DNA of 64,000 nt from Falciphora oryzae (taxonomy: Eukaryota > Ascomycota > Sordariomycetes > Magnaporthales > Magnaporthaceae), in NCBI GenBank assembly GCA_000733355.1, contig JNVV01000035.1, forward strand, positions 73,682 to 137,681, given 5' to 3'. This document shows, in pieces, positions 2-28,600 of this stretch (its first letter is position 1; every line of letters starts with the position of its first letter). The position numbers and the translations under genes were made by a program. The notes under the pieces were generated by a model. That model was given only the letters and a program-made list of their open reading frames with translations, had not been told where the DNA came from and did not search any database.

Positions 2-1447
2 CAATTCCGGCTCGCTGAATCCCCTATACGCCTTATTTTCGCCACAGTTTCCCTGGGTATGGGAATGGATATTCCAGACGTGATGCGGGTGGTGCAGTTC
101 GGTCCCTTAATTAGCCAGAGCGTTGCCGATTTGTGGCAAAGGTTTGGGCGGGCGGGCCGTGCCGGGGTAGGACAGACCAGGGCCTACTTTTTTGCCCCCT
201 ATTGGTATTTCAACCTCATGGGCACGCACGGCGAAAAACTCAAAAAAAGAAACCCCAAAGGATTTACCATCAACCAGCAAATGGCGTTTACCGCGTCTGG
301 AAACTCATCTACCACCAATAATGGCGTTTCGAGGACACCATTAGACGATCCACCGACGACACCTACCCAACCCACTTTGCCCCTTTCTCAGGAGTCGTTT
401 GTTAGTTTACGCTTTTCGCCAGTCGACCTCACGGCTCCCTCTGCTCCTGCGGAGCTTTACTTTCCTGCCAACACCCGGCTGGGCATCTTTTCGGGCACAG
501 GAGGGAATATTAAATGGTCCGCGGACGATCTTCAAAAACGACAAGCTCTTCAAAACGATGCACCCGATATGTTCGCCTTTATTAACGCGGTGTGTTTCCG
601 CGGTGTGGCGCTCGAAATTCTGCAGGAGCACAGACCATCCGAAGCCCCTCCCAACATTTGTTGTAATGGATGCAACCATTTTCTTGGCGACCTTCCACCC
701 CTCCCACCCAAAACCACACCACAAGACAAAATGCCACGCAATCACAGCCTCCAATGGTTCGCCTTGCAAGAGCTGTTCATTTTTACAAAAACATTGGCAA
801 ACGAGTATTTATTCCCTGACAGCTCCCTCACCTACCAGTGGCCTAAAGAAACTCTTTTCGGGCCACTTGTCGCCGCTCGCGTCGCCGAACTCATCAGCTC
901 CCATCTCCCTTTCAACAATTTCCAAAAGCTTTGCAGCCGCGTCGATGCTTTTAGCAATGGGGAATGTGACCATTGGATAGAGAAACTCGGTGGTCGTTTT
1001 TTTGACGGCCTAGTCGGCGTGAAAGAAAGGGCGAAGGTGGCATATAACGAGCATATAGAAGCTTGGCAGAAAGCGCGGAACTCCCAAACAGCCGCCCTGG
1101 AGCGGGAAGGACCACCAGCAAGACTACAGCCTACCCCCGTCCCCTTTCGAAACGCGAACCCTGCAACGCCATGGCCCAATGTGCTAAATACACCAGCTAG
1201 CGCGCCAGTGCCGATCCGGACCGGCCTCCCATCCACGCCAACAAACACGACTCCGAGTGCACCGGTTAGATTAAGGACGTTCGCAATCGGCGCGGAAGGG
1301 CCGCAAACCTTCGGAGGCAAGGGCGGCCGCAATAATGGGAGCAGGGTCCGGGGAAATAGCACCAGAGGGGTAGTACATGCGTCAGGCGGAGAGCGGAACC
1401 GGGGGTCAGGGGCAAGTGACCACAGCAGTTCTGCTAAAAGGAGGTGA
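2..1447 (+). CDS. RecQ-like DNA helicase, C-terminal part (runs off the left edge)
   Basis: The reading frame is open from base 2 to a TGA at 1445-1447, so the gene begins outside the window. The first residues contain the end of a superfamily-2 helicase core: motif V (FATVSLGMGMDIPD) and motif VI (QRFGRAGRAG), which contact ATP and DNA in RecQ-type helicases. A cysteine cluster follows (CFRG about 130 residues on, then NICCNGCNHF), resembling the degenerate zinc-binding region of fungal RecQ-like proteins. The last 100 residues are Pro/Thr and then Gly/Asn/Arg rich and probably disordered. No internal stop is seen, unlike the next gene. RecQ-like helicase genes of this kind are often multi-copy and repeat-associated or subtelomeric in fungi (known of the family); that this copy is subtelomeric is inference. 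Family call firm, function of this copy unknown. Confidence 0.8.
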   Translation, partial: QFRLAESPIRLIFATVSLGMGMDIPDVMRVVQFGPLISQSVADLWQRFGRAGRAGVGQTRAYFFAPYWYFNLMGTHGEKLKKRNPKGFTINQQMAFTASGNSSTTNNGVSRTPLDDPPTTPTQPTLPLSQESFVSLRFSPVDLTAPSAPAELYFPANTRLGIFSGTGGNIKWSADDLQKRQALQNDAPDMFAFINAVCFRGVALEILQEHRPSEAPPNICCNGCNHFLGDLPPLPPKTTPQDKMPRNHSLQWFALQELFIFTKTLANEYLFPDSSLTYQWPKETLFGPLVAARVAELISSHLPFNNFQKLCSRVDAFSNGECDHWIEKLGGRFFDGLVGVKERAKVAYNEHIEAWQKARNSQTAALEREGPPARLQPTPVPFRNANPATPWPNVLNTPASAPVPIRTGLPSTPTNTTPSAPVRLRTFAIGAEGPQTFGGKGGRNNGSRVRGNSTRGVVHASGGERNRGSGASDHSSSAKRR

Positions 1448-2092
1448 TGGAAAAAATACGCGGCTGGCGCGCCAGCCTTTACGTTTCCATGCATTTACAA
1501 CGCGGAAGGTCGAAGTGAATTTAAGGTTAAATCTGCACCCACCTCCCGGCTTGGCATGTTATAGCAAAGCCAATTACAAGCTATTATTTAGCCGATAATC
1601 CACCAGCTTTGCCTACCCCGCCGCCCCGCCGTCGTCTTTCCAGCACGCGGGATATGGTGCCTACAAGAACAGATTTTACAACGCCTAAGGTTTATTACCG
1701 CAACACGACATTTATACAAGTGATGCCCACGATACCAGATTAAAGTCGCCCTTTCCTAATGCGGTAATTGCCTCGAAAAAATGTTTGCAGAGCCCCACAT
1801 GCAGCGGCACGGGCCAACAGGGTGCACGGACCCACTAGCCGGCCATATATAAACCCCTCCCTCTGCCCGCCTCCCAACGTTGTCGACTTTCCTTTCTTTC
1901 CTTCTTTTCCCGACTTTCCCGGCAGGTTAGACGTCCCTCAGCCTCCTCTCACCCCCCGACACGTCAAAAAGTACTCTCGTGGGCACCATATCCCCCGATC
2001 TCGACACGACTCGGCGTGGTTCGACTTCCTCGGTGGCTAAGCGCTTGTGTTCCCGCAAGGCGCACGAGCGCTGGCACCTGGGAAGGTTGCAG
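1448..2092 (+). promoter_or_regulatory. Intergenic promoter/leader region of the SNF2-type gene, TATA box at 1846-1853
   Basis: No convincing reading frame is present. TATATAAA at 1846-1853 is followed by a pyrimidine-rich tract (about 1856-1950), the usual layout of a strong filamentous-fungal promoter. A consensus 5' splice site (GTACGT) at 2093 and a branch point/acceptor (CTAAC near 2298, AG at 2321-2322) indicate an intron in the leader. One arm of the repeat found in the introns of the downstream gene lies at 1977-1991. The transcription start is inferred, not seen. Confidence 0.5.
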
Positions 2093-2218
2093 GTACGTGT
2101 GACTCCAAGGTGACTTTTACTATCATCTGTATATTTACTTTCCTGTGGGGTGTTTGGATATTTGTGATCCCCGACACCACGGTTTTTGCTTGCGCACTTT
2201 TACCGGCTCGTTTTGGGA

Positions 2219-2279
2219 GAAATGATGCCCATGGGAATACTTTTTCTGCACTGATTCTGCTCCCGTGGGCACCATTTCT
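2219..2279. repeat. Intronic inverted repeat, copy 1 (leader intron 2093-2322)
   Basis: Arms GAAATGATGCCCATGGG and CCCGTGGGCACCATTTC face each other across about 27 bases. The repeat lies inside the inferred 230-bp leader intron, upstream of its branch point. It is the same element as in the other introns of this gene. Confidence 0.75.
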
Positions 2280-2489
2280 GCATTTTGTGTGATTATACTA
2301 ACTATGGCCGGGACGAATCCAGTTATGCCTCCCAAGCAGACCACTGCAAAGGCCCGGGCGCCTCCCAAACAGGGAGGCGCCGCAGCAAAGAAGAAGGCAC
2401 CAAAAACTCCCGCCGTCGTAGACGACTCTGATTCCGATGAGCTTTCGGACCCCCCTTCCTCCGACGATAACCCGCAGCCGATGACGGCC

Positions 2490-2768
2490 GCAGAGAAAAA
2501 GGCCGCAGCGAAGAAGGCCGCAGCAGAGAAGAGGGCCGCAGCCGCAGCAGAGAAGAAGGCCGCTGCCGCTGCAGAGAAGAAGGTCGCTGCAGAGAAGGCC
2601 GCTGCCGAGAAGGTCGCTGCAAACAAGGCCGCTGCAGACAAGGTCGCTGCAGACAAGGCCGCTGCAGAGAAGGTCGCTGCCGAGAAGGCCGCTGCGGAAA
2701 AGGTCGCTGCGGAGAAGGTCGCCGCCGAGAAGGTCGCTGCCGAGAAGGCCGCTGCAGACAAGGCCGCT
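2490..2768 (+). repeat. Coding tandem repeat (Ala-Ala-Glu-Lys type)
   Basis: Imperfect 12-15 base units encode runs such as AAEKVAAEK within exon 1 of the SNF2-type gene. The translated segment is alanine- and lysine-rich and would form a charged helix or disordered linker. It produces long artefactual open frames on the minus strand. Confidence 0.75.
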
Positions 2769-3260
2769 ACCAATGCCGCTACCGACTCTAATAATAACGA
2801 CGTCCCCCCTTCCTACTGGCCTGAGCACAAGCAGGTTGACCAACTCGGACTTTTGTCGCTCCCGCCCCCGAGCGAGTTCACAGTTGAGAAGGCCATGCGG
2901 AGCAAAAGCGGCAACAGCAGTAAGGGTAGTGTGTTTGCCAAAAAGAAGATCGAGCTGCACGCCGGGTTCGCCAATCTCGCCAAAATTGACTACCTCGACC
3001 CCCATCCCTCCTGGTGGAAGGGGGATGTCCACACGGGCCGGTATGCTGTCCATGCGCGCAACAAACTCCCGAACCCACCCGGTCGTGCAGAGTCTGCAGA
3101 TGGCAAGAAAGCCACTGCCCACAAGATCAACGGCCAGACATTGGCCTATCCCATGGCCGTTAGCTTAAACAGCCTGAGCGAGGCGATGCCTATTTTGGCG
3201 TACAGTACCACGACCCTGCTGGCCCAGCACTCTGACACAGAAGGTTCGTTTTATCTTTCC

Positions 3261-3391
3261 AGAAATGGTGCCCACGGGAGTAGATTCGCTTCTGCGAAGC
3301 TGTTCCCGCGGGCACCATTTCTTTTCTCCCAAAACCATTCCCACGGGCACCATTTCTCTTCCCGAAACTATTCCCATGGGTATCATATCTT
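3261..3391. repeat. Intronic inverted repeat, copy 2 (intron 3244-3415), with extra arms
   Basis: The 172-bp intron carries a left arm GAAATGGTGCCCACGGG and three successive right arms (around 3307-3325, 3336-3357 and 3370-3389, each a variant of CCCRYGGGCACCATTTC). This suggests local duplication of one arm. The splice acceptor (CTAAC, then ACAAG) follows directly. Confidence 0.75.
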
Positions 3392-4744
3392 TGTATTAAG
3401 CTAACCATTTACAAGTGGCTGATTATTTCGGCCCCCTCACATATCTGCAACGCGGACACAAGCAAAAGGGCATCGACGGCTTGAGCTTTGGCGATTACTA
3501 CAAGGTGTACGGCGCGGTGGGCAAAGTCTTCCGAGATACTGCTACCAAAGACCTTTTCCAAGCCTTGGCCCGCGGACCTGTGCTCCCCGGACCGCCCAGG
3601 CTTTGCAAAGGTGACGTCAATGCCCCCGACGCTAAAAAGGCGACTGACAAGGCCATGGTTGCCACGACAGAGACCATGATTGCCACCATGCTCCACTACC
3701 TTCGAAACTGCACCACTGGCAAGCCTGGTGACTTCCGGTATACCCAAGCCCCTGACTCTCCCCCCGGCACGTTTGGTGGGTTCGTAGCCGATGATTGGTT
3801 CCGGGCGTTTACGCACTACATTTACTTTGGCTTCCGCCGGAAGGGCAAAGTCCAGCTGGACGGGTCGCAGGGACCTAACACCGTTCTCGAAGCTCGCGCG
3901 GACGGCTCCAGCGCGTTCGACCCCTACGTCTTCTCTCGCATTGAGGACGGAGGTATTCTGGGAGAAGACGAGCAGGAGCTGGTTCCAGAGAACTTCGTCG
4001 CCGCCGGCAATTTTCAGCTGCATAACAGCCGAATGTTGCTTAAGCGCCCGTTAATACAAAAGATGTTGATGGATTGGAGCGAGGAAGATATTAATCGTGC
4101 CATGTACAACCGCCTGGTTATGTTTAACGCCTTCGACCCGTGGCAGAAGTTCAGCCACAAGGGTCTTTCCAAGCGGAGAAAGGCTGCGGGTGTCGCGGCA
4201 GCTATGAAGGTGGAGCCCCTGGATATGTTGACCTTGCAGCAGATCATCCAGGACGTGTACCAGTCTGGTCACGCGCGACCTGTTATTAGGAACAAGGTTC
4301 CTGATAACCTTGATAAGATGTTCCCATTTTTATTTGGAAATGGCAAGACCGATGTTAACGACTTTCTGGCCACACAGATGAGTATCGTGGAGGCGCAGAT
4401 CAAGGACGCGGTTATGGATGGCGAGAGTGCCGCCCAAGCCGAGGCTCGAATTTGGGCCCAAACCAAGAAGTGCTACCAGATCTTGAGTGTTTTGCATAAG
4501 GGCCATCCTTTCGTCGGCAAGTATTCCGACGCAACTTTGCTGAAGGCAGCCCTGGAGACGCTGCAAATGTACGACGGTAGCAAGCCCGAGCAAGGGGTTT
4601 TTGATCTAGACGGTTAAGTCTTGGACTACGACAAATTCAAAGAGGCGTACGCCTGGGGCAACTGGGATACGAACGGCTTAAGCGGCAAGCACTTCCTGCC
4701 TTATCAATTGATTGGTAAGCAATATGTTTTGAAAAGCACTGGCC

Positions 4745-4807
4745 AGAAATGGTGCTTACGGGAATAGTTTTTCCGTATTCCGACTGTTCCTACGGGCATT
4801 ATTTCTC
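4745..4807. repeat. Intronic inverted repeat, copy 3 (intron 4715-5010)
   Basis: Diverged arms GAAATGGTGCTTACGGG and CCTACGGGCATTATTTC; a further half-arm (TTCCCACGAG) lies about 20 bases on. At 296 bp this is the longest intron of the gene. Confidence 0.65.
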
Positions 4808-5663
4808 GTCCTTTTCCATTCCCACGAGCGCAAGATCTTTTTTTTTCTGGGCTCTGCTTGAACAGGTTGCATTGCTAAGGCGCCCGTATTATAACTGCAT
4901 GATCCAGTCCCATTTGGCGTCGCAAACTCGCCAATCTTTTCCTAATTTAGCTCGCTTAATTCCCTGATGGCATGGTCTGCCTTGTTATCACATACGCTAA
5001 CGCTTAATAGATGCTTACATTCTGATGACGCTCGAGCATAAGGGATGGAACGGCTGGCTTTTTGCTAACGAGGTCGGAACGGGCAAAACATTCGTCTACC
5101 TACTCACTGTGCTTATCGACGCCTATCGCCGGGAGTCCAACGCTGCCAAGTTCCCAGATAAGGATCACCGCTATCGCCCCACAATGGTGTTTGTCCCGGC
5201 CAGTTTTTTGGCCTAGACTTTTGCCGAGGCAGAGCAGAATTTCCCAGGTCTGGAATTCTATTGCTACTACGGCACCAAAACCGGCTGTGCTAGTGACGCC
5301 GCTCGGGCCAAGGCAACTGTGACGCCTAGGGAGTAGGATGCCCTGGTGCGTCGCCTCGCCAAGGGCACTAAGGACCCTCGGTCCGGCAGAGTCGTTATTT
5401 TCACCTCGTTCCATACTTTCATTAAGCGGGCTGTGAGGCAGTCCAAGCAGGAGCTTGATTTCGACAAGTCCATCGGGCGCTTAGGCTACGACCGCGTCCA
5501 TTTTGGCAAGAAGAAGCCTCGCAATGACGGCGAGCCCGGAGACCACAGTGACGACGAGGAATTCGTCGAGATAGACGATTCTGATGACGAAAGCGATTTC
5601 GACGAGGAGCTCGAGGCTGCCAAAGCTTCCTATGGACGGTAAGTGACATTTCGGGGTAGGGGA

Positions 5664-5713
5664 GAAATGATGCCCACGGGAGTGCTTTTTCTGCTTTCGT
5701 GGGCACCATTTCT
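5664..5713. repeat. Intronic inverted repeat, copy 4 (intron 5639-5766)
   Basis: Arms GAAATGATGCCCACG and CGTGGGCACCATTTC form a 15-base stem with a single mismatch around a T-rich loop. This is the cleanest copy. The intron is 128 bp. Confidence 0.8.
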
Positions 5714-7076
5714 TTCCCCTCGCCTCCTTTTAATTACAAATTGCTAACATTTATATTCGATAACAGTATTCGCACCTCCATGGACCAAGGAACTGGTCGC
5801 ACCATTAAAACCAAAGATGTCCCCCCGACCAAGGAGTACAACGTCTTCGAGATGTACTTCCCCGATGAGATTCTTTTCGCCCGTGCCATTTTCGACGAGG
5901 CCCAAAACGCACGCAACCCCGCGAGCGTTAACCACCGCATCGCTAGAATGTTTCCTGCTCGGAACCGCGGTTTTTGCACCGCGACCCCTACCATTAACCG
6001 CATCACAGACATTATCGGCTTCTCCGCCCTGATTTGGGATATTGCAGGCCTAACTGGTTTTGTTACAAAGCCCGCGGGATTCGATTGGGATACTATGGCG
6101 CAACCGGGGTATAAATATGATCGCGACGGTGCCAACTCCTGGTACGGACCGAAAACTCCGCATTCTGTTAGGGCGACGCTCAATTCCATGGAGGATCGCG
6201 GCTTTAAGTGGTGGCTGATACACCCCGAGGCCCAGCGGCTCATTTCCGACTCGGACGACCCCCAGCAACTATCTGATGAGATTTTCCGCGCCACGAACGT
6301 CTTCACTTTTCGACGAGGCATGGACACTTGTGTCACCCTCGCTAACGGTACCAAAACTTACCCGCGGGAAAAGATCCCGCCGCACGAGATCGTGTTAGAG
6401 GACATCGCCTACGGCAAAACTCGCTGGAAAGAGGTGGTCGACATTACGGAGAGTATTTTGAAGAATGTTTCCCCTCCCCTCGTCTATGATGGAGACGGCT
6501 TTGCGCAGATGCCGTCGGTGATAGACTCGGGTGACAGCCGCGGTCCCGTCGGTGCAACCCCAGCCGGGTCGGTAGCCGCCGAGCCTGGAACCAAGCACTC
6601 CGAAGGCATGAGCTTGTTTTTGATCCGCTCTTTTACTATCGCTGCCATGGACTACGCGTCGTGGCAAATGCTAAACGAAAACGACGCCACCACCGAGGCT
6701 TCTTCGGCCGAACTGGAGAACGTTTTGGCCAAATCGGGCATGGCGGTCAAGACGTTGCATTCGAACAAGAGTGCGCGAGTTCAGCAGAAGGAGATACTCC
6801 ACGACGGGGCCCAGGTTGCTAGGCTCGGCGCCGAGGTCGTCGATTCGATTATCGCGAATTCCAGCGATGGTCCTCTATCGTGGATGTATTCTACTCTGGT
6901 TGATATCGACGGCGTGGTCCCGCCCTTTGGCCGTGCGGAACCCCTGATCTACTTCCTTCGCAAGTCTCCGCTGTGGACTCGGATATTCGAATTGGTCGCC
7001 AAGAACAAGAAGGAGGGTCACCGGACCTTGATTATGACGAACATGCCTTGGATGCAATAGTAAGTTTTTTTCGTTG

Positions 7077-7126
7077 GATATGATGCCCACGGGAATACTT
7101 TTTCTGCTTTCGTGGGCACCATTTCT
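7077..7126. repeat. Intronic inverted repeat, copy 5 (intron 7060-7195)
   Basis: Arms GATATGATGCCCACG and CGTGGGCACCATTTC with almost the same loop as copy 4. Phase requires the acceptor CGCAG at 7191-7195, with TGATAAC as branch point. Confidence 0.8.
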
Positions 7127-7549
7127 CCCAAATTTCGACTTTTGCGCGCATACATTTTTATACCCAGACCTTGATAACGAAATTTACCCTCGCAGTGCCC
7201 TGGCATCGCTCCTTCTTAAAGCGAGCTTTAAAACCATTTCCATCCGGTCCGGCGTCGGCGTCCAGGAGCGGGAGAAAATGGTGGCCGATTGGAATAATCC
7301 CGACTCTGATCTGGACGTTTGCGTTTTGAATACCAACATTTCGAGTGCCGGCTTCAATCTTTATGGTGCCTGCTGCCGCGGCATCATCGCCTGCACATTT
7401 TGGAATATCAACACGCTAATTCAGGTTATCGGTCGATTAATTCGGCTGGGCCAGAAGAAGCAAGTGCTTTGGGTTATTTTGCGGATGCGCGGCACCATTT
7501 TCGATTGGCAAGACATGAGAATGACAGAAAAGGTTGGTGCATTGTAACA

Positions 7550-7575
7550 TTTATTACTCCTGTGGGCATTATATT
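7550..7575. repeat. Half-arm of the intronic repeat (intron 7533-7588)
   Basis: The 56-bp last intron keeps only one arm (CTCCTGTGGGCATTATAT) before its TTAAC branch point and TTTTCAG acceptor. It looks like a deletion derivative of the longer introns. Confidence 0.55.
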
Positions 7576-8748
7576 TAACCGTTTTCAGTTCTTTTACGAG
7601 CTTATTTCCCGCCTCCGCCTGCCTGGCATTACGTCCCAGTTGCTGAAGAAATTGGTTGCATACGAAATTACGCGTTTGATGTTCGCCCAGCCCTATAACT
7701 ACTTCGGCTACGTTGTCGAGCCCCCGAAGTCTATGCTCGATTTCGTGTCCGATTGTGCCATGCGCATCGGCCAGTTCTACAGCCTCCTGGTCAAGCTGAT
7801 CTTGTCGGACAAGCCTGTTGGCGAGGATTAGGAGCAGATTTATCGCATCCTGATCGATTTCGTCTATGTTTTTGGCCCTGCGTATGTGGATCTTACGTAC
7901 CAGGAGCAAAAGGGCGGTCGGTTTGGCGACACAACACGCACTGTCCTGGTCTATGATAACGAGATCGAGAATATCATAACGTGGGATTACATCCGGGTTA
8001 TTATGAAGTTTGCATAGGACAACGCCGATGTGTACCAGGGCCACCACAAAGCTCCTTACATCGGAGCGCCGGAGCGCCATTTCGGATCGGCCCCGAATCT
8101 ATCCATGCAGTTTGAGGGCGACACTCCCGAAGACATCCGAAGCTATGACCTCTTTGACGTCGTGGTGCCTAACAACCCGAAGGCTTTTGGTTGTCTAGTG
8201 GAGATGGAGCGAAAGCAAGATAAGGATAAGGAGGATGGCGATGAGAACGGAGGTGACGTCGACCCCAAGACGCCGAAGAAGCGCAAGAGGGGCCCTGCGA
8301 AGCCGGGTGAGCTGTCTGCCAAGAAGGTTCGGCTGGAGAAGCAGAGGGCGACGCAGGCTGGTGAGGTTTAGACTTTTGGGGGCTGTTTGATACTAATCGG
8401 TTTTTTTGTTTTTTCCATACTATTTTAAAAAACCTCTTGAAAACCGGTTTGCGGATCCGGGCCAGGGGCTCCCTGGCCCTTGTAAAAAGCCTAATAAATA
8501 TAGCTACAGACCCGTTAGAAGTATCTTTTTAACCAGGGCAACGAGTCGCGTTTGTGCAGGCCCTGTAAGCCACGTGTGACCCCTGAACAGGCCCCGTGCA
8601 GGCCCGGGCAGTCTAGAAAATGAAGGGGATCCTGCTCAAGTGCTGGAAGTAGGGGGATCCCCAAGTTGTTCCCTTCATTCTACCTGCAACTCTAGCCCGT
8701 TGATCACGGCAAAAGTATCGATAAACGCGTCTTTTTTTGCTCTATCCG

Positions 8749-9993
8749 ATGGATAACTCCCTATCTACTTCCCGGGCTTTGTACCGGCGCAAAGTCCGTC
8801 GCCTCTTTTTTCTTTGTATGCAGGCCGTCATATCCACCTCCCTCTCCGGATCCTTTGGGTCCGTGGGCGGAGGCCTACGGACCGTGCATACGGCTATCTT
8901 TGCCGGCGACACCTTTCTCCAGTACTGGCAAAGACCCGCGGCCGCCCCGGCCTTCCAGGAGCTCTTCCGCATCAACCAAAGCACTTTCCGGGGCCTCTGC
9001 GACTGGCTGATCAAAAATACGGGGCTCACGGGGTCCAAAATCGTCTCCTTGGGCGAGAAAGTGGCCTCGTTCCTGTATATCTGTGGGCAGGGAATCTCCC
9101 TCAGAGTCGCCGCCCATGTTTTTGGCCGCAGTACCCAAACAGTGCACCGCTATTTTCACGAGGTACTGCGAGCCATGCTGTCCCTCCACGTCGCCTTTGT
9201 GACGTTGCCTGACGTTTCTAACGTCTCCTGGCCCGATTCCAGGCGTCAGGAGGTCCGGGAGGCCTTCGCTGGGTGCCTGGGAGCCGTCGACGGGACCTTG
9301 ATCAACGCCAAAATTAGCGCAGATGCAGGGGTTGCATGGAGGAGTCGGAAGGGGCCTACTGCGCAGAACGTTCTCGCGGCCGTAAATCACGGCGGGCGGT
9401 TCGTTTTCGTCATGGCAGGTGCCGAAGGGTCGATACATGACGCTCGACTGCTTAGGGAGGCCCAACAGGCCGGATTTCGGATCCCACGGGGTCATTTTTA
9501 CCTTGGAGATGCCGGCTTTTTCATGGGCACCGGGGTAATTACTCCTTTCCCTGCAACGAGGTATCACTTACAGGAACAAGGCCTTGCCCGGCCAGAGGAT
9601 CCGCAGGAGCTTTTCAATCTGCACCACGCTAAAATGCGCGTTGTTGTTGAAAGGTGCTTCGGTGATCTCAAAGGCCGCTGGAAAATCATTAGGGGCACGG
9701 CACCCGACTACCGTTTCCCTACCCAGGTCGACATTGTGCTGGCCGTTACAGGCCTGCATAACTTCATTTTAAAAAGCGAGTCGAGGGCATCTTCAGCATC
9801 CAACTCCGGTCCCAAACGAACCAGAATTGAGCGAGAAACTGCAGTCAGAAGGGCTCAAGTTGTGAGGGAGGCTATGGCGAGAAGCAGGGAGATGGGCACC
9901 ACGTCTGGGTCTTGGGCACGGTACAGGGCATCGATAGCAATTAAATTGTGGGACGACTACCAGGCCTACAGGGCTCGTGAGGACACGGGGTAA
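8749..9993 (+). CDS. PIF/Harbinger transposase (HARBI1-like DDE nuclease)
   Basis: Uninterrupted frame of about 414 residues starting at the first ATG of the frame (8749). An N-terminal helical region ends in a helix-turn-helix-like segment (ISLRVAAHVFGRSTQTVHRYF). The DDE_Tnp_4 nuclease follows, with its acidic residues visible in GAVDGTLI (first Asp), YLGDAGF (second Asp) and VVVERCFGDLKGRW (Glu). The tail is Arg/Ser-rich. No stop or frameshift disrupts it, in contrast to neighbouring elements. It should cut and paste the flanking TIRs together with the Myb-like partner encoded on the other strand. Confidence 0.92.
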   Translation: MDNSLSTSRALYRRKVRRLFFLCMQAVISTSLSGSFGSVGGGLRTVHTAIFAGDTFLQYWQRPAAAPAFQELFRINQSTFRGLCDWLIKNTGLTGSKIVSLGEKVASFLYICGQGISLRVAAHVFGRSTQTVHRYFHEVLRAMLSLHVAFVTLPDVSNVSWPDSRRQEVREAFAGCLGAVDGTLINAKISADAGVAWRSRKGPTAQNVLAAVNHGGRFVFVMAGAEGSIHDARLLREAQQAGFRIPRGHFYLGDAGFFMGTGVITPFPATRYHLQEQGLARPEDPQELFNLHHAKMRVVVERCFGDLKGRWKIIRGTAPDYRFPTQVDIVLAVTGLHNFILKSESRASSASNSGPKRTRIERETAVRRAQVVREAMARSREMGTTSGSWARYRASIAIKLWDDYQAYRAREDTG

Positions 9994-10692
9994 CCTGCGT
10001 TCGACTCGCTTCGGCGAGGGGAATCGGAAGAAGGTTACCGCGTGTATATTGAGGCATTGGTTCAAAGGGGAGGTTAACTGAAAACGGCGATATGGTGAAG
10101 GTCTTTATGTAAAAGTAGCCAGCTTTAGCATAGCGAAAAATGGTCTGTTCCATGCAATAAAGGTAGCGTTCGATTGCCCTCGTTAAGGCGAATCGAATGA
10201 TGGTATTGCCAAAAGGAAAAGTTGAAAATTGAAGTGGTGGCCGTCGACTGCAACAGGGGATTGTTTTAGGCGTGCGTAGACGTTACCCATTTGGGCAATA
10301 TATGCGGTGGCGATAGTTAACCGAGAGATTTACTGGGTCCGGGTGGGTATCGCAACACGGGGGTAACACTTTTCGAGCTTTGCCGGCCAACTTGCGATTT
10401 TCTTTTCGCAATGATTCCAGCGTTTGTTCTCGTCGGGACTTGGTGCATTTTGATCGCCTTTTCGAGGCCAATTGAATGCCGTAACCCGCGGCGCAATTGA
10501 TGCTATTTTCATCTATTTAAAAGCGAGTGGTGGTGTATCTGGTAACCTGCCCAGTGGTGATCTCCGTGTTCTACAAACCCTTAACCTCCCCGAAATCCAA
10601 CAAAGCAACTGACAACAACACTCCCCAATAACTTTAGCAAAACAGATCGCCCGAGTACGAAAATACCCTCATTCGAACCGCCCGAACCGCGC

Positions 10693-11883
10693 CTACAAGC
10701 CCTGCCCTTCGTTTTGCACGAGATCCACAATCAAGTCCCTGTCCTCCACGTCGGTCAGCCACCAGTGCGCGAGGCTTTCGTTTTCTTTGAAGGCTTTGAC
10801 TAACTGCACCCTAATCCGGCCCGACAGCATATTCCACGGGTGCTTCCGGAGCTCTTTGGAGGCCCAAATCCACTCTTCACGCCTTAGCCAGTGCCTGGAA
10901 GGCCGGCGGCCGGATCCAGGGGCCTGGGAAGNNNNNNNNNNNNNNNNNNNNNNNNNNNNNNNNNNNNNNNNNTCTGCCCGTGCCAGAACCCGTGCAGCCT
11001 CGAGAAAGCGGTCCCCGACGTGAACCTGGGCTTCCGCTACCGTGAGGTGCCCGGCCCTGCCAGAGGGACGTCTCCTGCCGGCTCCAGGGCTCTGCCGATC
11101 TTCCGGATCTTCGTCGGCCTCGTTCAAGGCCGCCAGGCGCTGGGCAGCCGTGGTTATATGCTCCCTTGTCCCCCAAGTCCCTGTGAAAACAGCGTAGTGA
11201 AGATCCGGCCGAAAAAGAGCCGTTCTGCGCATCCAGCGTGCGTCGGGCCGGAGGGAAAGGAAGGCCTGCCAAGCTTGATCGCTGGCGAGATACAAGCCCG
11301 TGATCGGATCCAGGGCAACCCCTGAGCGTTTCCCGAAGTCTATCCAGTCTTTGAACCTCGTTTTCAGGCCGTTATATTTGTTTTTGACCCTATCAGCCCA
11401 CCGGATCTCTGGCCAACGCTCAGATAAAGCCGCAGCGGCCGTCTTTTGGCACTTGGCAACGCAGGACGAGATCGCCGGATTCAACTTCCCCTGCCGGGCC
11501 GACTCTGCGAGAGACTCGAGGAACACTTCAAGCTGATCAACAGTCCAGTTAGAGCGTCTGCGAGGCTGCAGATACCCCTGGGAGGTCCCCTGGGAGGTCC
11601 CCTGAGTCGACTGCGAGGATTGCAGAAGGGAGGAGGGCGTGGTAGGCCCAGGGGAGGCCGGAGGGGACGTCTCCGTCGATTCAAAGGGGTCAAAAAAGTC
11701 GAGGTTATCGTCGGGCTCTGGGCTTTCTACCGGGTTAAGGGGCGTTCCTAACGATAACTGCGTGGCCGGGAGGCCCTCCTCTTCCCCTTCGGGGGGTACA
11801 GGAGACGAGGGGGGCAGGGATTGGGCTCGATCCGCGCTTTCCTGGCGCCGGCGCCGGATGCGGAGGGACAGTTGACGAGGCAT
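10693..11883 (-). CDS. Harbinger-associated Myb/SANT-like DNA-binding protein (contains an assembly gap)
   Basis: About 396 residues including the gap. A Pro/Ser-rich acidic N-terminus precedes a trihelix Myb-like domain beginning RRSNWTVDQLEVFLESL, with W..RVKNKYNGLKTRFKDW further on, the pattern of Myb proteins encoded beside Harbinger transposases. These proteins bind the subterminal repeats and escort the transposase to the nucleus (known for the superfamily). A run of 41 N at 10932-10972 lies in the C-terminal third; the frame continues on both sides (…WIWASKELRKHPWN… to the stop), so the true gap is probably close to the stated length. Confidence 0.8.
   Translation of the reverse strand: MPRQLSLRIRRRRQESADRAQSLPPSSPVPPEGEEEGLPATQLSLGTPLNPVESPEPDDNLDFFDPFESTETSPPASPGPTTPSSLLQSSQSTQGTSQGTSQGYLQPRRRSNWTVDQLEVFLESLAESARQGKLNPAISSCVAKCQKTAAAALSERWPEIRWADRVKNKYNGLKTRFKDWIDFGKRSGVALDPITGLYLASDQAWQAFLSLRPDARWMRRTALFRPDLHYAVFTGTWGTREHITTAAQRLAALNEADEDPEDRQSPGAGRRRPSGRAGHLTVAEAQVHVGDRFLEAARVLARAXXXXXXXXXXXXXXXSQAPGSGRRPSRHWLRREEWIWASKELRKHPWNMLSGRIRVQLVKAFKENESLAHWWLTDVEDRDLIVDLVQNEGQGL
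10932..10972. other. Assembly gap (41 N) inside the Myb-like gene
   Basis: Run of N. It falls within a low-complexity, GC-rich part of the coding sequence. Confidence 1.
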
Positions 11884-11893
11884 TGCAACGGAA

Positions 11894-11958
11894 GTAGGGT
11901 CGGTAGGTAGAAGGGAGGGTTGGTAGGTAGAAGGGAGGGTTGGTAGGTAGTGTAGGTA
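11894..11958. repeat. Short tandem repeat upstream of the Myb-like gene
   Basis: About 20-base units built on GGTTGGTAGGTAGAAGGGA, a little over two copies plus partial GGTAGGTAG units, just upstream of the start codon at 11883. It may be part of the element's promoter or subterminal transposase-binding array; no direct evidence for either. Confidence 0.6.
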
Positions 11959-12422
11959 GGGTAAATTGATCTGTTCAACACTCGACTTCCACTTGAATCC
12001 GGACTACCAGAGGCTGCCACTTATATATCCCGTTAATCCCTGGCTTTTGAGCTCTCGAACGAGCCTAAAATTAGCCTCAGGGACCCTTTGGATCCCTTTG
12101 AAAGTGAAGCCATTCAGGCCTGATTTTACCCGTGATCACGACTTTGTACGGGCCGTTGTTATATTTGGGAATAGCTTCTATTTCTGACGTTGCTGCAGTC
12201 GCTTTTTTATAAATAGACATGACCCAGAGGCCCTAGATGAAAGCCAACTCAAAATCAGGGCGAAATGTACAAGTCCGGGCACAGGGGCCCCCCGGAGGCC
12301 GTCTCCACGTCGAGAATAAGCTTAAAAAAAGAGGCAGGGATCAAAAAAACCAAAAAACCTTTAGTATCAAACACGCCCTTGGTTTGCCTGGGACTTGTGG
12401 TGTGTAGAGTAATTAGTTTCCA

Positions 12423-12487
12423 GATATGATGCCCATGGGAACCATTATGCGTGGTTTTCAAATAGTCTTATGGGCATTACATCTTTT
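12423..12487. repeat. Further copy of the SNF2-intron inverted repeat, in the displaced 3' flank
   Basis: Arms GATATGATGCCCATGGG and CTTATGGGCATTACATC lie about 50 bases beyond the Harbinger insertion, i.e. in what was the sequence directly after the SNF2-type stop codon. This is the only complete copy outside an intron. Confidence 0.65.
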
Positions 12488-12618
12488 CTGCCGGCCCCTG
12501 CTTTTATTGCTATAAGCAATACAAGGGGCGCAAGGAGGCAGGTGAAATAGAAACATCCATTTTTTCACGCCCCGTTTTCCCCACGAATTAGTAGCGGCCC
12601 TTCCCGCGACATCTCCAA

Positions 12619-12640
12619 TAAGGTTGCGGGGGCAACCTTA
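12619..12640. repeat. Perfect 9-bp stem-loop
   Basis: TAAGGTTGC and GCAACCTTA around a GGGG loop, 60 bases past the stop of the DUF6589-type gene, so in its likely 3' untranslated region. No further role can be shown. Confidence 0.5.
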
Positions 12641-12701
12641 AACGCAAATCATTTCCACTACATCGGTGATCAATTGATAAGTATTAGGCGCTGGCATGTA
12701 A

Positions 12702-15399
12702 CTACAACCATCCAGCGTTACTGTCCTCAGAGTCGCTCGCGCCAGATAATGCACCCACTCCTGCATACTCCCTATCACCTTCGTTATTGATAATCCCAAT
12801 CTGCTCCCGGGTTCCGTCCTCGCTATCACTTTCGTCCCCTGGGACATATTCCATGGGATTGCGCGGCCTGACCACCGTAGAGTTGAAAACTTCGACTCTC
12901 CCACTTAAAAGGTAACCCACCCCGTTTTCAAAAAGGTCCGGGGCGTCCCAGTTAAAATTTGCCCACATATGTTGTCGATGCGACGCCCAGCCGTCCCGTA
13001 AAAGCTTGCAAGCGTAATTTTTAACATCGAGCTTGGTGCCTACAACCGTGTGGCGCCCTGCGTTGTAAGTACCGAACCGGGTTTCGAGGGATTTGCGAAT
13101 TTGTGCAGTTATGGGCCCAAGGGCGGCACAGAACTGGAAGGTAGCCCACATGTCGTGCGTCGAATTGCGGTTGTTTTTGATGTCGGCCGCAAACCCCCGG
13201 TTGATATGTTTGATAGCAAGGTCCGCTGGCTTATAGCCGCTTCCTGTTGTTGTACATCGAACAAGACCGCTTCTCAATATCCCTATCCTCAGAGGTTCAT
13301 CCGTAATTTCTGGGTGGAGGAGCCATGCCAAATATAACATTTCCGTCCCGTAATTTCTGGCTTTGGATCCATGGAAAAATAGGATAAGCTGGGGAATAAG
13401 TTGACGGAGCACTCCGTAATCCCCTTCTTGAATGGCGATCCGGACGGTCCATATTAGTCGGATAGCGACAAGGTATCGGCATTGAGACCGGAAGGCAATG
13501 TTAACTGAAGTGCGGTCGTCTTCATACACTCCAGTGATTGCTTGTTTGGAAAAGGCCTCAGCTTCTATTTTCGCCAGGACGGAAGCGATGTAGGCAGGGG
13601 GGAGAGCGGGGATAACTTTTTCCATGGTGGTGGGCGTGATAGAGCCTGTGAATTTGCGATCTTGCTGCAGGAAGTAAAGGATCATTGCGAGGACGCGGGC
13701 TCTATAGGCGTCCTCTAACAAACGGATGGAATGGAAGAATTCTGGTTTCGAGTGGGCCAGATGGCGTGCCCTACCCAGGCCGTTGGTATTTTGCCGAATA
13801 AGTGGTCGGAACTTTTGCCACATGTAATGCAAGTAGTTTAGCTGGACATGGAAAAAGGCTGGGATGGGGAGGAGCCACTGTTTGCGGTAGTAGTGGCTGC
13901 GCGAGTTTAGTGCGGATTGTTGAAGTCTCCTAATAAAGGAGGTGGTTTTCTGGTCGCTATGAAGCAGGAGAAGTACTTGGCTGTAGTCAAAGTTGTTTTC
14001 TTTGAGGCCGAGAAGGCGTTGGAAAAGTGCGTCATGGACCCGAGCTACTCCTGATAGCTTGCTTTCGTTTTCTGGGATAGCCGGAGTTTGTATAAGGTAT
14101 GAGGGGGGGGAAGTGACCCTTTTTATAACAGGGAAACTGTAAGAGGGAAACGATTGCGAGGAGGCAAACAGATGGTGCAAAATTTCGTGGCGGAGAAAGT
14201 ATTGGTGACACAAGGATTGTGATGGCGGGGACGATGCGAACCAAGGCTGAAAAAGCCAGGTTTTTTTGAAAGGTATTGTCGCATGAAATTGTGATTGTGT
14301 ATAACGTTGGATGTCGTCGTTGCTTATAAGAAGACATGTCGTTAAGTTGCGTATCGTATTGGTACGGCCAGCTCCGAGATTTTGAATACGGTCGATAAAA
14401 TTAAAATTGTCGTATACAAATGATAAGCTGGGGTCGCGGGCAATCCGTAAAAGGGTGCCCTTTGGGTTGTTTAGCACGCACACTTTTGCTGGTATTAAAA
14501 ATGCCTTTCAAACTATTATTAATTCGACTAACGTACTTTAGCTTGGTTTTCCAACTTCTTTATGCTCTTTCGAGTAGGTCGGTAATGCGTACACATCCCC
14601 AACCTAGCTAACACTTCGACAACGCGGACGGGAACTCTACTGGTAATGCTGTAAATGCTAAGTGTCCGCGCCATGTAGTTGCTTTGACGAGGGGTGCGAA
14701 TGTGTGCAATCATATTGGCAATGGCAAAACATTGCATCTTTTTTTGAGAACGTGTGGGATCGAGTGGTTGGGATGTGGATGGGGTAGAGGTTTGGGGAGG
14801 TTGGGTCGATTGCTAATGATGCCGAGGTCTTTCCATAAGACGGTGTAATAAATGATATAGCTGGGGTGCGTGCTTTTGGAAAACAGTATCGCTGGACGAA
14901 AATCGGGACGCTATCCAGCTTACGTCAGATACGTTTTTAGCTGTGCAAGGCCCATTGTTCTCGACGATAGTTTGGGGATCGAATGTATCGAACGGGGTGA
15001 AGCGGACAAGTGTGTTCAGCTCTTTTTGCAAAACGTCAATATGGACTTCGTTAGGAGATTGGTTTTCCCCACGGAAATGCATGACGACGCTAGCTTGAGC
15101 AAGAGAACTTCGAACTTCTGGGTTTTGCAGTACTCGGAGGACTTGCGAAATGCGCGGAGCATTGCGTCTTCCGTCTATTTGACGCAAGCACACCCAATCG
15201 CGGAAAAAGCGGACAAAACTATAATCGTGTTTGCGGTTGTGCCAAAAGGAGATGGTTTCGGATACGATGTTTGACCAGAAAGCATCGTCCGGTGGAGGGT
15301 TGCGGTCGATTTCGATATCGACATCGGAATCATCAGGTTCGGCGAGGGAGGATGGCGGTCTGGTTGTGGCAGTGGATGGTGACGTTAGTTCGGCACGCG

Positions 15400-25606: not shown

Positions 25607-28600
25607 ATGGATTTGCCGTCGCGGCCCGCCGACCGCGGCGGTTTCCACATAGCGATCATATGTGCCTTGACCCTCGAGTCCAATGCCATCGACCTCCTTT
25701 TCGACGAAATTTACGACACAGGGTACGGACGTGCCATCGGCGACAATAACACATACACCACAGGGCGCGTCGGCAACCATGCCGTCGTACTCCTTGTACT
25801 CCCAAACATGGGAAAGGAGGCTGCGGCCGCGGCGTCGGCGCACATGCTCTCCAGCTTTCCCATCATCAAACTCGCCTTAGTAATCGGCATCTGCGGAGGT
25901 CTCCCTCATATAGGTGGTGAGGAGGTCTTTTTAGGTGACGTGGTTATTAGCAGGAGCATTGTCAACTACGACTTCGGCAGACAGTACCCAGACAAATTCG
26001 TCGTCAAGTCCAGCGTCGAGGACAGCCTCGGGAAAGCCAACAAGGACATCCGAGGATTGCTGAACTTTTTCGACCGGGAGCACGACTTGGGAGTTCTGCA
26101 GTCAAAAGCCGTGGCGAATTTGAACCGACTGCAAGCCGCTGCGATTGCGAAAAGGCGAAAGGCCAAGTACACCATGCCTCCCGACGACACCGATAAGTTG
26201 TTCCCTCCGGACTACCAACACGCCCATCGCAACAAAGAATGCGACGCTTGTGCGGCACATTCCATGCGCTTTTGCGAGGAGGCCTCCAAACTATCCTGCG
26301 ATGTAGCAGGGTGCGACCTTTCCCTCCACAAACCGAGGCAGAACCGCCAGCAGGAGCGCCCGGCAGAGCTCGTCCCCCAAATCTTCATCGGTAAAGTGGC
26401 TTCGGGCAACGCGGTCATGAAGTCGGGCCAGCATCGGGACAGGATCGCCAAGGAGTACGAGGTAATCGCCTTCGAGATGGAAGGAGCCGGGGCATGGGAC
26501 GAGGTTCCTTGCATCGTCGTCAAGGGCATCTGCGACTATGCCGACAGCCACAAGAACAAGCAATGGCAAAACCTCGCGGCGGCAACGGCGGCTTCAGTGG
26601 CCGTGGGGATCCTTGGTAAATACGAGGTGGCAGGCGCCGCTACCAGGGCCACAGCGACTTCTGCCGAAGGCGCGCTTCGCATTCGACCCCTGCCCGAGCA
26701 GGCCCTGGATCGCGTAACGCACAACTACCACAACCAATCAGGGTCTGGCCCGAATCTCCAAGGGAGGAGCACGTTCAACTTTAGGGGTCAGTAGCCTTTG
26801 TTTTAATTCGGTGCATTGTATCACTCTTGGGAATATCAAGAGGTCAAGGACCCTCGCGATTGGGATATTGGCATCTCGGCAGATTTTAGGCCTAGGTTGC
26901 TGTTCACCGGGCGCTCTAGGAAGAAGGCAAGCAAGATCTCGGCGCACACATTGAACTACCTCCGCGGCTATGAGAGACTGTTCAGCAAGTTCGTGGACGA
27001 CTTCCTCGGGCCGGAGAGAGCCTCGGTGACCGGATCGGGAGGAGTGCTTCGTTAGTACAAGCGCTACCATTTAGTGACGCACAGCAACTAACATGACAAA
27101 AAGAAGTCGGCACCCATTATTATATCCCGCTCTCAAAGAACAGATATTTTGTGGGACGGGCGGAAGTCCTCGGCAGACTCGAGGAGAAGCTGTTTGGCGA
27201 GGATGGCCCTCCACGCGTCGCCCTCGTCGGGCTCGGCGGCATCGGCAAAACACAAGTGGCACTGCAGCTCGCCTACTTAACGCAGGAGAACAAGTCAGGG
27301 TGGTCCGTCTTTTGGGTGCCGACTTTGAGCATGGCAAGCTTCGAACAGGCGTGCGTCGACATAATCGGGGAGCTGGGCGTTCCACTTGGTGAGGGTGAGG
27401 GTGCCAAGGACGCATTCCGCCGCCATTTTAGCTCGCCGACGGCGGGAAAGTGGCTGCTGATTGTTGACAACGCCGACGACAGGGATGTTCTGCTCGGGCA
27501 AGGCAATGAAGGCGGAATAGACGACTACCTGCCGCAAAGCAGCGGTGGCCGGATCCTGTTCACGACTCGGTCTCGAAAGGTGGCCACCAGTGTTGCCAGA
27601 AACAATATCGTCAGCCTATCAGAAATGAGTCGTGGCGAAGCACGAGACTTTTTGGAAAAGTCATTGGTCGAAACAAGTTTACCGCCGGAAAACCTTGTTG
27701 ATGAATTCCTAAAAGAGCTCGCCCATTTGCCGCTGGCGATCACCCAGGCGGCCGCTTACATGAACGAGAACCAGGTATCGATTGCGGAATACCTTGGAAT
27801 TTTCCGCAATACGGATCGGGACAAAGTCGAGCTACTAGCCGCAGAATTCATAGACAACACACGGTACAAGGAGACGCAGAACGTGGTGGCAACGACATGG
27901 ATCATTTCGTTCGAGCAGATCCACAAGATCAATGCGGACGCGGCGAAGCTGCTCTCATTCGCGGCATGTGTCGAGCCCAAGGCCATACCGCGGTCGATGC
28001 TGCCCAGTGTAGGGACAGAGCAGCGAATGACGGGGGCGATCGGGCTGCTTTGCGGGTATGCGTTCCTGGGTAAGCGAAGGGATGGCGGCATGTTCGACAT
28101 GCACAGTCTGGTGCACTTGGCGACACGGGAGTGGGTTAAGGGGAAAGGAGATACGGAGAAGATAATGGAAGACGCTTTGGCGCAGCTGGCGGCAGTTTTC
28201 CCCAGCGATAAGTGGGAAAATCGCGAGCGATGGAGGCAGTATATGCCGCATGCGCTTAAAATGCTTCAGACGGATGGAGCGGCGAGGAGTGGTGAAAGTG
28301 AAGCAATGAATCGATTGAGATTTTGGGCAGGGCGGTGTCTACAAGTGGACGGACGGATCCGGGAGGCGGTCGATTTATTGGAGCACGTGGTGGCTGTCCG
28401 AGGGAGAACGCTCTCGGAGGAACACCCTAATCGACTGGCGTCGCAGCACGCACTCGCCATGGCATATCGGGCCGACGGGCAGGTTAAAAAGGCGGTCGAT
28501 TTGTTGGAGCACGTGGTGGCTGTCAAAGGGAGAACGCTTTCGGAGGAACACCCTGATCGACTAGCGTCGCAGCACGCACTCGCTATGGCATATCGGGCTA

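What the first reader, a model, noticed from the sequence alone, without database searches (positions are those of the whole stretch)
1977..7588. One inverted repeat occupies every intron (and the flanks) of a SNF2-type helicase gene
All five coding introns, the inferred leader intron and the 3' flank contain the same element: arms GAAATGRTGCCCACG and CGTGGGCACCATTTC around a T-rich loop (copies at 2219, 3261, 4745, 5664, 7077, half-arm at 7550, and 12423; half-arm at 1977). Exons contain none. Ordinary fungal introns of one gene share only splice signals. Possibilities: introner-like elements that created the introns; a hairpin that pairs splice sites or regulates splicing; a site for an RNA- or DNA-binding protein that marks this gene; or a small MITE tolerated only in introns. 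The copies outside introns argue against a pure splicing role. I know of no described fungal system with this arrangement.
Basis: partly seen in the sequence, partly recalled or inferred. Interest (0 to 1): 0.9.

Follow-up and report, generated by a model that had tools for sequence, protein, structure and literature searches.

The report
Gene-private repeats filling a gene's introns
A fungal SNF2-like gene carries its own short, partly palindromic DNA site in its 5' flank, every intron and 3' flank but in no exon, two diverged sister genes carry repeated sites of their own in similar places, and the pattern looks more like a private control site kept by selection than like a mobile or intron-making element.

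Summary
The arm AAATGRTGCCCAYGGGA is confined to this gene, its copy on contig C30 and one intron of a neighbouring gene there: all 18 sites with at most one mismatch in 50.2 Mb lie in these two loci. It occurs in 5' flank, leader intron, all five coding introns and 3' flank; no exon hit scores 10 or more. It did not create gene A's introns: paralogues C45 and C6a have them without it. It is not a dispersed MITE.

New: paralogue C45 repeats a related motif in promoter, 5'UTR and introns 1-3; C44 repeats a dyad of its own in flanks and introns 1, 2, 3 and 5. C6a and gene B fail the same test. Arms change at about half the rate of the remaining intron. I favour a locus-specific array of protein-binding sites; gene A's hairpins come from inverted pairing of sites. 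Neutral local spread is the main rival.

In passing: a TAG at a tryptophan codon is shared by four family sequences and sits in a predicted hairpin loop, suggesting UAG-to-UGG mRNA editing.

The parts
1650..1669 (+). single arm in 5' flank, outside the block shared with C30
   Evidence: matrix score 22.2
1716..1735 (+). weak single arm in promoter, 11 nt inside the left edge of the block shared with C30
   Evidence: matrix score 7.6; block edge at 1705
1974..1993 (-). single arm in presumed 5'UTR
   Evidence: matrix score 26.3
2218..2279 (+). hairpin in leader intron (about 2093-2322)
   Evidence: z -5.1
3261..3322 (+). hairpin in intron 1; its loop lies inverted in the C30 copy
   Evidence: (z -8.9 for 3244-3390)
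3338..3357 (-). extra single arm in intron 1
   Evidence: matrix score 29.8
3371..3390 (-). extra single arm in intron 1
   Evidence: matrix score 24.6
4745..4806 (+). hairpin in intron 2
   Evidence: z -4.3
4819..4838 (-). weak extra arm in intron 2
   Evidence: matrix score 12.4
5663..5713 (+). hairpin in intron 3
   Evidence: z -4.9
7076..7126 (+). hairpin in intron 4
   Evidence: z -2.1
7557..7576 (-). single arm in intron 5
   Evidence: matrix score 19.1
12422..12484 (+). hairpin in 3' flank, displaced 4 kb by a transposon insertion
   Evidence: (z -3.8)
2325..8371 (+). SNF2-like gene A, six exons, RIP-like decay, five internal stops
   Evidence: Pfam SNF2-rel_dom weak, below cut-off
5334..5336 (+). 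in-frame TAG at a codon that reads Trp in C6a and C44; in a predicted hairpin loop
8379..12379 (.). Harbinger-type transposon inserted behind the gene (DDE_Tnp_4 ORF and Myb/SANT-like ORF)

Best explanation
The repeat is an array of a short cis-acting site belonging to this gene's lineage, kept in the promoter region, 5'UTR, introns and 3' flank and absent from exons. Each arm is a dyad-like unit (CCC-NN-GGGCACCATTT on the sense strand), the form expected of a site bound by a sequence-specific, probably dimeric, protein. Two diverged paralogues carry arrays of their own, C45 with a related site and C44 with a differently spelled one of similar layout, so site and gene appear to diverge together. 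In gene A many sites have become inverted pairs and therefore hairpins; the hairpin is secondary. The likely role is locus-specific control of transcription or chromatin, possibly by the gene's own product. Shown: distribution, confinement to the locus, pre-existing introns, slower change of arms, arrays in two paralogues. Inferred: protein binding, regulation, self-recognition.
For: Confined: 14 of 14 exact 14-mers and 18 of 18 sites with at most 1 mismatch to the 17-mer lie in the two loci. Every intron hit: probability 0.0007 to 0.01 for 8 to 12 random insertions. Arms in introns differ at 23 of 258 sites between the two gene copies, the rest of the introns at 99 of 600, Fisher p 0.004. C45: an exact 11-mer in introns 1, 2 and 3 that has 18 sites genome-wide; CCCGTGGGCACYA has 9 sites in 50 Mb, 7 in the A/B loci and one in the C45 promoter; A and C45 matrices alike, p 0.0003. 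C44: 27 hits of 12 or more, none in an exon, against 0.4 expected (matrix seeded from the same locus). Recurrence across segments: A 7 of 8, C45 4 of 7, C44 4 of 6, above all 20 shuffles and all 30 real-DNA samples each. All 17 arms compared have an aligned counterpart in C30 with 1 to 4 differences; 1650 (outside the block) and 4819 were not compared.
Against: C6a, with introns at the same five positions, has no such array, and gene B fails the same test. The A matrix scored on C45 is significant in the promoter only (p 0.001); its introns singly give p 0.06 to 0.46 on the sense strand. A and C44 matrices are not significantly alike (p 0.11), nor C44 and C45 (0.59). In a scan for dispersed exact 11-mers over 44 tiles, C45 has one such 11-mer, as have four other tiles without an array, and C44 has none. 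The C44 matrix was built from its own copies, and parts of its introns 1 and 3 are tandem arrays by eye. No binding protein is identified; no expression data; no multi-intron genes outside the family were annotated as a control.
Confidence: 0.45

Rival explanations
1. Neutral local spread: a short palindromic sequence was copied to nearby places by template switching or repair, and copies survive only where they do not break the protein. The arrays in C45 and C44 are independent cases of the same process.
For: Confinement to about 10 kb plus a neighbouring gene; tandem extra arms in intron 1; inversion of the intron 1 loop between copies, a known accident of hairpins (passages of PMC6824564); C44 motif not significantly related to A's; no covariation beyond shuffles.
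Against: Slower change of arms; every intron hit; 17 of 17 compared arms present in both copies at dS 0.24; A and C45 motifs alike and both present upstream of the genes.
Confidence: 0.33
2. RNA-level element: the hairpins or sense motifs act in the pre-mRNA, for instance in splicing or in autoregulation by an RNA-binding protein.
For: Stable folds; in the transcribed part the single arms all point the same way (1974, 3338, 3371, 4819, 7557), and the exact and one-mismatch C45 copies within the gene are on the sense strand.
Against: Copies at 1650 and 1716 and at C45:118268 lie upstream of the TATA-like sequence; intron 5 has one arm only; intron 4 folds weakly; no covariation; C44 has both orientations.
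Confidence: 0.13
3. Introner-like element that makes introns.
For: The hairpin-bearing 123-nt intron of gene B is absent from B' and from the homologous exon of gene A, C45, C6a and C44, and nearly the whole intron folds as one extended hairpin, z -8.5, as fungal introner-like elements are said to do (passages of PMC8469720).
Against: Gene A's five introns are old; similarity between copies is limited to the 50 to 62-nt hairpin and single arms and does not include splice sites; no copies in other genes.
Confidence: 0.06
4. An ordinary MITE tolerated in noncoding DNA.
For: Short, with inverted arms.
Against: No copies elsewhere in 50.2 Mb; no target-site duplication noticed by eye; no two-armed copy present in one gene A copy and missing from the other.
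Confidence: 0.03

Closest known systems
Fungal introner-like elements and symmetrical sister (st)wintrons
   Same: repeated, symmetrical sequences tied to spliceosomal introns
   Different: those are whole introns present in many genes (passages of PMC4457414 and PMC8469720); here a hairpin core sits inside old introns of one gene and also outside introns
Clusters of transcription-factor sites, including intronic enhancers (recalled)
   Same: short dyad-like site repeated in promoter and introns
   Different: one or more sites in every intron, nearly private in a 50-Mb genome, and spelled differently in paralogues
Subterminal transposase-binding repeats of DNA transposons (recalled)
   Same: many copies of a short site around one gene
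   Different: sites run through all introns and not only the ends; no transposon ends found for gene A
Small hairpin-loop inversions, reported in plastid genomes (passages of PMC6824564)
   Same: loop inverted between otherwise colinear copies (intron 1)
   Different: nuclear fungal gene; arms belong to a dispersed array

Membership tests
[quoted passage not shown]
   all 18 sites with at most 1 mismatch in two loci
Introner-like elements | the element is the whole intron, splice sites included | tested here: not met
   similarity limited to the hairpin and arms
Introner-like elements | occupies intron positions absent in relatives | tested here: inconclusive
   not met for gene A's five introns; met for gene B's intron
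Introner-like elements | symmetrical, stable fold | tested here: met
   z -2.1 to -8.9 for the six window hairpins, -8.5 for gene B's intron; C30 intron 4 only -1.1
MITE | dispersed multicopy in the genome | tested here: not met
MITE | target-site duplications | tested here: inconclusive
   none seen by eye; empty sites too diverged to align
cis-regulatory site array | site slower to change than surrounding noncoding DNA | tested here: met
   23/258 against 99/600, p 0.004
cis-regulatory site array | site kept in diverged relatives | tested here: inconclusive
   C45 related motif, C44 own motif, C6a none
cis-regulatory site array | bound by a protein and needed for expression | not testable with these tools
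   needs ChIP, DAP-seq or reporter tests
A-to-I restorative editing site (side finding) | UAG at a Trp codon in a hairpin loop, frame open on both sides | tested here: met
   gene A C30 copy and C45; in C6b the loop is predicted but the fold is not better than shuffles
A-to-I restorative editing site (side finding) | G in cDNA reads at the site | not testable with these tools
   no RNA data

The most novel reading that the evidence does not exclude
Members of this fungal SNF2-like family each carry a private address: a dyad site scattered through the gene's own promoter, introns and 3' flank and nearly absent elsewhere, which diverges together with the gene and is read by the gene's own product or a dedicated partner. 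That would be a self-addressed control or self-recognition system whose code differs from paralogue to paralogue, used by genes whose mRNA is completed by UAG editing, a process described for sexual stages of other fungi.
Probability: 0.17. Interest if true: 0.88.

Novelty: new variant of a known kind. Interest (0 to 1): 0.62.

Why it matters
Introns of one gene are expected to share splice signals only. A gene family in which several members fill their introns and flanks with their own short site would make locus-specific regulation by intronic DNA directly testable in a fungus, and would show site and gene diverging together. The shared in-frame TAG adds a second test: whether a family of chromatin-type ATPases depends on stage-specific mRNA editing.

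Tried and rejected
Introner for gene A: rejected by shared intron positions. Dispersed MITE: rejected by genome searches. RNA covariation: not above shuffles. Rfam: no match in 1400-13000 up to E 1. Other species: the protein search, which scored 7995 candidates, gave 3 weak hits (two named as cyanobacterial, one unnamed) and no recognised fungal homologue, so orthologues could not be compared. Solved structures: only weak hits, the best to ISWI remodellers at E 0.2. Structure prediction was not used. Papers: ten searches were answered; one more call (50) failed. Of these I saw listings with titles and starts of abstracts; one search listed none. I saw passages of PMC8469720, PMC4457414, PMC9860276, PMC6824564 and PMC4817773. 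No listed title or abstract start describes gene-private intronic repeats in a fungal gene; the library is incomplete. My exon joins for C6a meet a stop after 1347 codons, so its gene model is not proven. C6a and gene B gave no array; C6a had one marginal pair (score 25, null maximum 24) and gene B one clear pair (promoter and intron, its own motif). The arm matrix also gives single hits of 12.8 near C6a and 10.6 and 10.8 in C2b, at chance level. The architecture pattern was written after seeing the motifs and is not an independent test.
Full report
What is there. The window lies in a 50.2-Mb genome in 123 contigs (window = C35:73682-137681), apparently a filamentous fungus with RIP-like mutation (inferred, no name is given). 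Gene A is a six-exon SNF2-like gene at 2325-8371 on the plus strand. Its introns are 3244-3415, 4715-5010, 5639-5766, 7060-7195 and 7533-7588, and its frame has five internal stops, at 4615, 5214, 5334, 7829 and 8015. Pfam gives SNF2-rel_dom only weakly, below its cut-off. With a matrix built from 12 arms there are 18 hits of score 10 or more in 64 kb, all between 1650 and 12484 and none in an exon; six of the 18 were not used to build the matrix. Shuffles of 110,722 bp gave 1.9 such hits on average.

A second copy. Contig C30 (357001-377000) holds a copy of the block 1705-8379 plus pieces of 12380-14090, at 86-90% identity on the opposite strand. C30:349487-357718 is masked, so the far edge of the block is unknown. 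Window 8379-12379 is a transposon insertion with a DDE_Tnp_4 ORF and a Myb/SANT-like ORF. Between the two gene copies dS is 0.237 and dN 0.032, ratio 0.135, and the length differences within exons are multiples of three. The window copy has excess C-to-T at CpA and CpT on the sense strand (0.177 and 0.173 against 0.055 at CpC and CpG, and 0.056 to 0.078 for the matching changes on the other strand at TpG and ApG). So the gene was under purifying selection and the window copy is decaying; in my exon joins the C30 copy has one internal stop.

Where the repeat occurs in the genome. Exact 14-mers AAATGRTGCCCAYG: 14 of 14 in the two loci. 17-mer AAATGRTGCCCAYGGGA: 18 of 18 sites with 0 or 1 mismatch in the two loci (one of them in gene B's intron), and 8 of the 23 sites with 2 mismatches; with 3 mismatches the counts (352 in all) approach those of the reversed control (242). 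A gapped hairpin pattern gave 70 rows, 19 of them in the two loci, control 6; by my reading the other 51 share only the letters of the pattern. A search with the leader hairpin found C35 and C30 only. The genome could not be searched with the covariance model.

Introns came first. A spliced alignment of the gene A protein to the paralogues puts introns at the same residues and phases in C45 and C6a: after residue 282 phase 1, 715 phase 1, about 924-958 phase 2 (poorly aligned stretch), 1355 phase 2 and 1468 phase 0. Their lengths are 85, 107, 167, 79, 72 nt in C45 and 74, 67, 73, 67, 59 nt in C6a, against 172, 296, 128, 136, 56 nt in gene A. The eight other family loci examined have no 11-mer of four or more copies in both orientations (C44 and C2a are partly masked), and the arm matrix gives only single chance-level hits there (C6a 12.8; C2b 10.6 and 10.8). 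So the hairpins did not create gene A's introns. For C6a the aligner also proposed two further gaps, and for C44 and gene B several implausible ones, which I did not count as introns.

Gene B. Head to head with the C30 copy of gene A stands a diverged SNF2-like gene B. Its 123-nt intron at L022:3392-3514 holds a hairpin closest to that of intron 1 (alignment score per position 0.82 for the window copy in the same orientation, 0.84 for the C30 copy reversed; other hairpins at most 0.69). The only paralogue found, B', has no intron there and the 108 nt around the site align without a gap. Gene A, C45, C6a and C44 have none there either. The intron is therefore a likely gain in B, perhaps made by the hairpin; loss in B' is not excluded. 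The intron folds as one extended hairpin (z -8.5). Gene B also has a motif of its own, ACCGGCCGGCRGSAKCYGRTGCG, with 3 sites with up to 2 mismatches in the whole genome, two upstream of B and one in another of its introns, but gene B does not pass the recurrence test.

The paralogues. C45 (start codon C45:118648) has the exact 11-mer GGGCTCAAAAC in introns 1, 2 and 3 and a one-letter variant in the 5'UTR. Of 18 such 11-mers in the genome these are 3; the reversed control has 27. The 13-mer CCCGTGGGCACYA has 9 sites in the genome: 7 in the A/B loci, one on C11 and one at C45:118268, upstream of the C45 TATA-like sequence; control 3. In register the A and C45 matrices are alike (p 0.0003, column permutation). 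Scored on C45 the A matrix is significant in the promoter (p 0.001) but not in single introns on the sense strand (0.06 to 0.46); combined p 0.0008, against 0.79 for C6a and 0.66 for B. C44 shows a dyad AAATYGCRACC-NN-GGTYGCRATTT in upstream DNA, introns 1, 2, 3 and 5 and downstream: 27 hits printed as 12.0 or more, none in exons, 0.4 expected; at 8 or more there are 37 hits, 3 in exons (8.6 to 10.0), with 2.6 expected. The matrix was seeded with 14 copies from this locus, and the exon limits of C44 are approximate. Genome-wide a 20-letter form has 29 sites with up to 2 mismatches, 9 of them in the C44 locus, including both perfect ones; control 17. A recurrence statistic (number of noncoding segments sharing an 11-mer with at most 1 mismatch on either strand) gave A 7 of 8, C45 4 of 7, C44 4 of 6, C6a 2 of 7 and B 2 of 6. 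The maxima of 20 shuffles each were 3, 2, 3, 2, 3 and of 30 real-DNA samples each from the window 4, 3, 3, 3, 3. A simpler scan for exact 11-mers with three copies more than 400 nt apart, over 44 tiles of 7 kb, flags gene A strongly and C45 with one 11-mer, but also four tiles without an array (window 31500, 35000, 38500; C21) with one each and a tandem array, and it does not flag C44. A and C44 are not significantly alike by matrix (p 0.11) and C44 and C45 not at all (0.59), so a common origin of all three is not shown.

Selection and structure. Within introns, arms differ at 23 of 258 positions between the gene copies, loops at 13 of 87 and the rest at 99 of 600 (arms against rest p 0.004). 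The pairing of arms holds in 89.9% of cells but shows no covariation beyond shuffles, so the primary site, and not the stem, is the better candidate for what is kept. The loop of intron 1 lies inverted in one copy (loop identity 0.68 forward, 0.86 reversed).

Reading. Because the arms are confined to one gene lineage, spare exons, hit each intron, change more slowly than the rest of the introns, include promoter copies, and have counterparts in two paralogues, I favour an array of protein-binding sites (0.45) over neutral local spread (0.33). Shown: location, confinement, age of introns, slower change, paralogue arrays. Inferred: binding and function. Weak points: no control set of unrelated multi-intron genes, no RNA data, no orthologues, and C6a is negative.

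Side finding. The one stop shared by both gene A copies (window 5334-5336) is a TAG. At the same alignment column C45 has TAG (121099), C6b has TAG, C6a and C44 have TGG, and B and B' have other residues. The four TAG sequences are three lineages, since two are the gene A copies. C45 is otherwise open for 1613 codons in my exon joins. The TAG lies in the terminal loop of a predicted stem in all four. Against shuffles the short stretch (52-55 nt) gives z -3.4 and -3.5 for the two gene A copies, -3.2 for C45 and +0.9 for C6b; with 75 nt the values are -1.4, -2.4 and -3.4 for the gene A copies and C45. Exons 4 to 6, behind the TAG, keep dN at 0.020-0.044 with dS 0.196-0.486, so translation evidently passed it during the divergence of the copies. 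This is the form of fungal A-to-I editing of UAG to UGG, which in Fusarium graminearum is perithecium-specific, lies in hairpin loops at 62.4% of sites and affects 69 PUK1-like pseudogene-like genes (passages of PMC4817773). RIP could also turn TGG into TAG (recalled), but would not keep an open frame behind it through this much divergence.

Noticed in passing
window 5334-5336; C45:121099; C6:about 1355787-1355789; C30 copy of gene A: The same codon is TAG in four family sequences and TGG (Trp) in C6a and C44, in a predicted hairpin loop; suggests UAG-to-UGG A-to-I mRNA editing of this gene family.
   Followed up: partly
window 8379-12379: Harbinger-type transposon with inverted ends (GGGCTGTTTGATACTAA...) and two ORFs, inserted between gene A and its 3'-flank hairpin; absent from C30.
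   Followed up: partly
window 1705-8379: RIP-like C-to-T decay at CpA and CpT on the sense strand only; the C30 copy does not show it.
   Followed up: yes
window 12702-14507 (minus): DUF6589 ORF, member of a family with 68 matched places in this genome, many with stops; no paper in the library holds both DUF6589 and fungi.
   Followed up: partly
C30:368492, 368634 and 371082 (L022, upstream of gene B and one of its introns): Gene B's own motif ACCGGCCGGC..., 3 sites in the whole genome.
   Followed up: partly
L022:3392-3514: Intron of gene B absent from paralogue B' and from gene A's family, carrying the gene A hairpin: possible new intron.
   Followed up: partly
window 3261-3322 and L021:9716-9777: Loop of the intron 1 hairpin lies in opposite orientation in the two gene copies.
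   Followed up: yes
L059, about 976-1571: About 600-bp insertion with inverted ends in an exon of gene B', seen by eye.
   Followed up: no
window about 28364-29720 and 39822-40610: Tandem arrays, mostly with a 126-bp period.
   Followed up: no
window 2-1447: C-terminal part of a helicase ORF (Helicase_C) just upstream of gene A, outside the block shared with C30.
   Followed up: no
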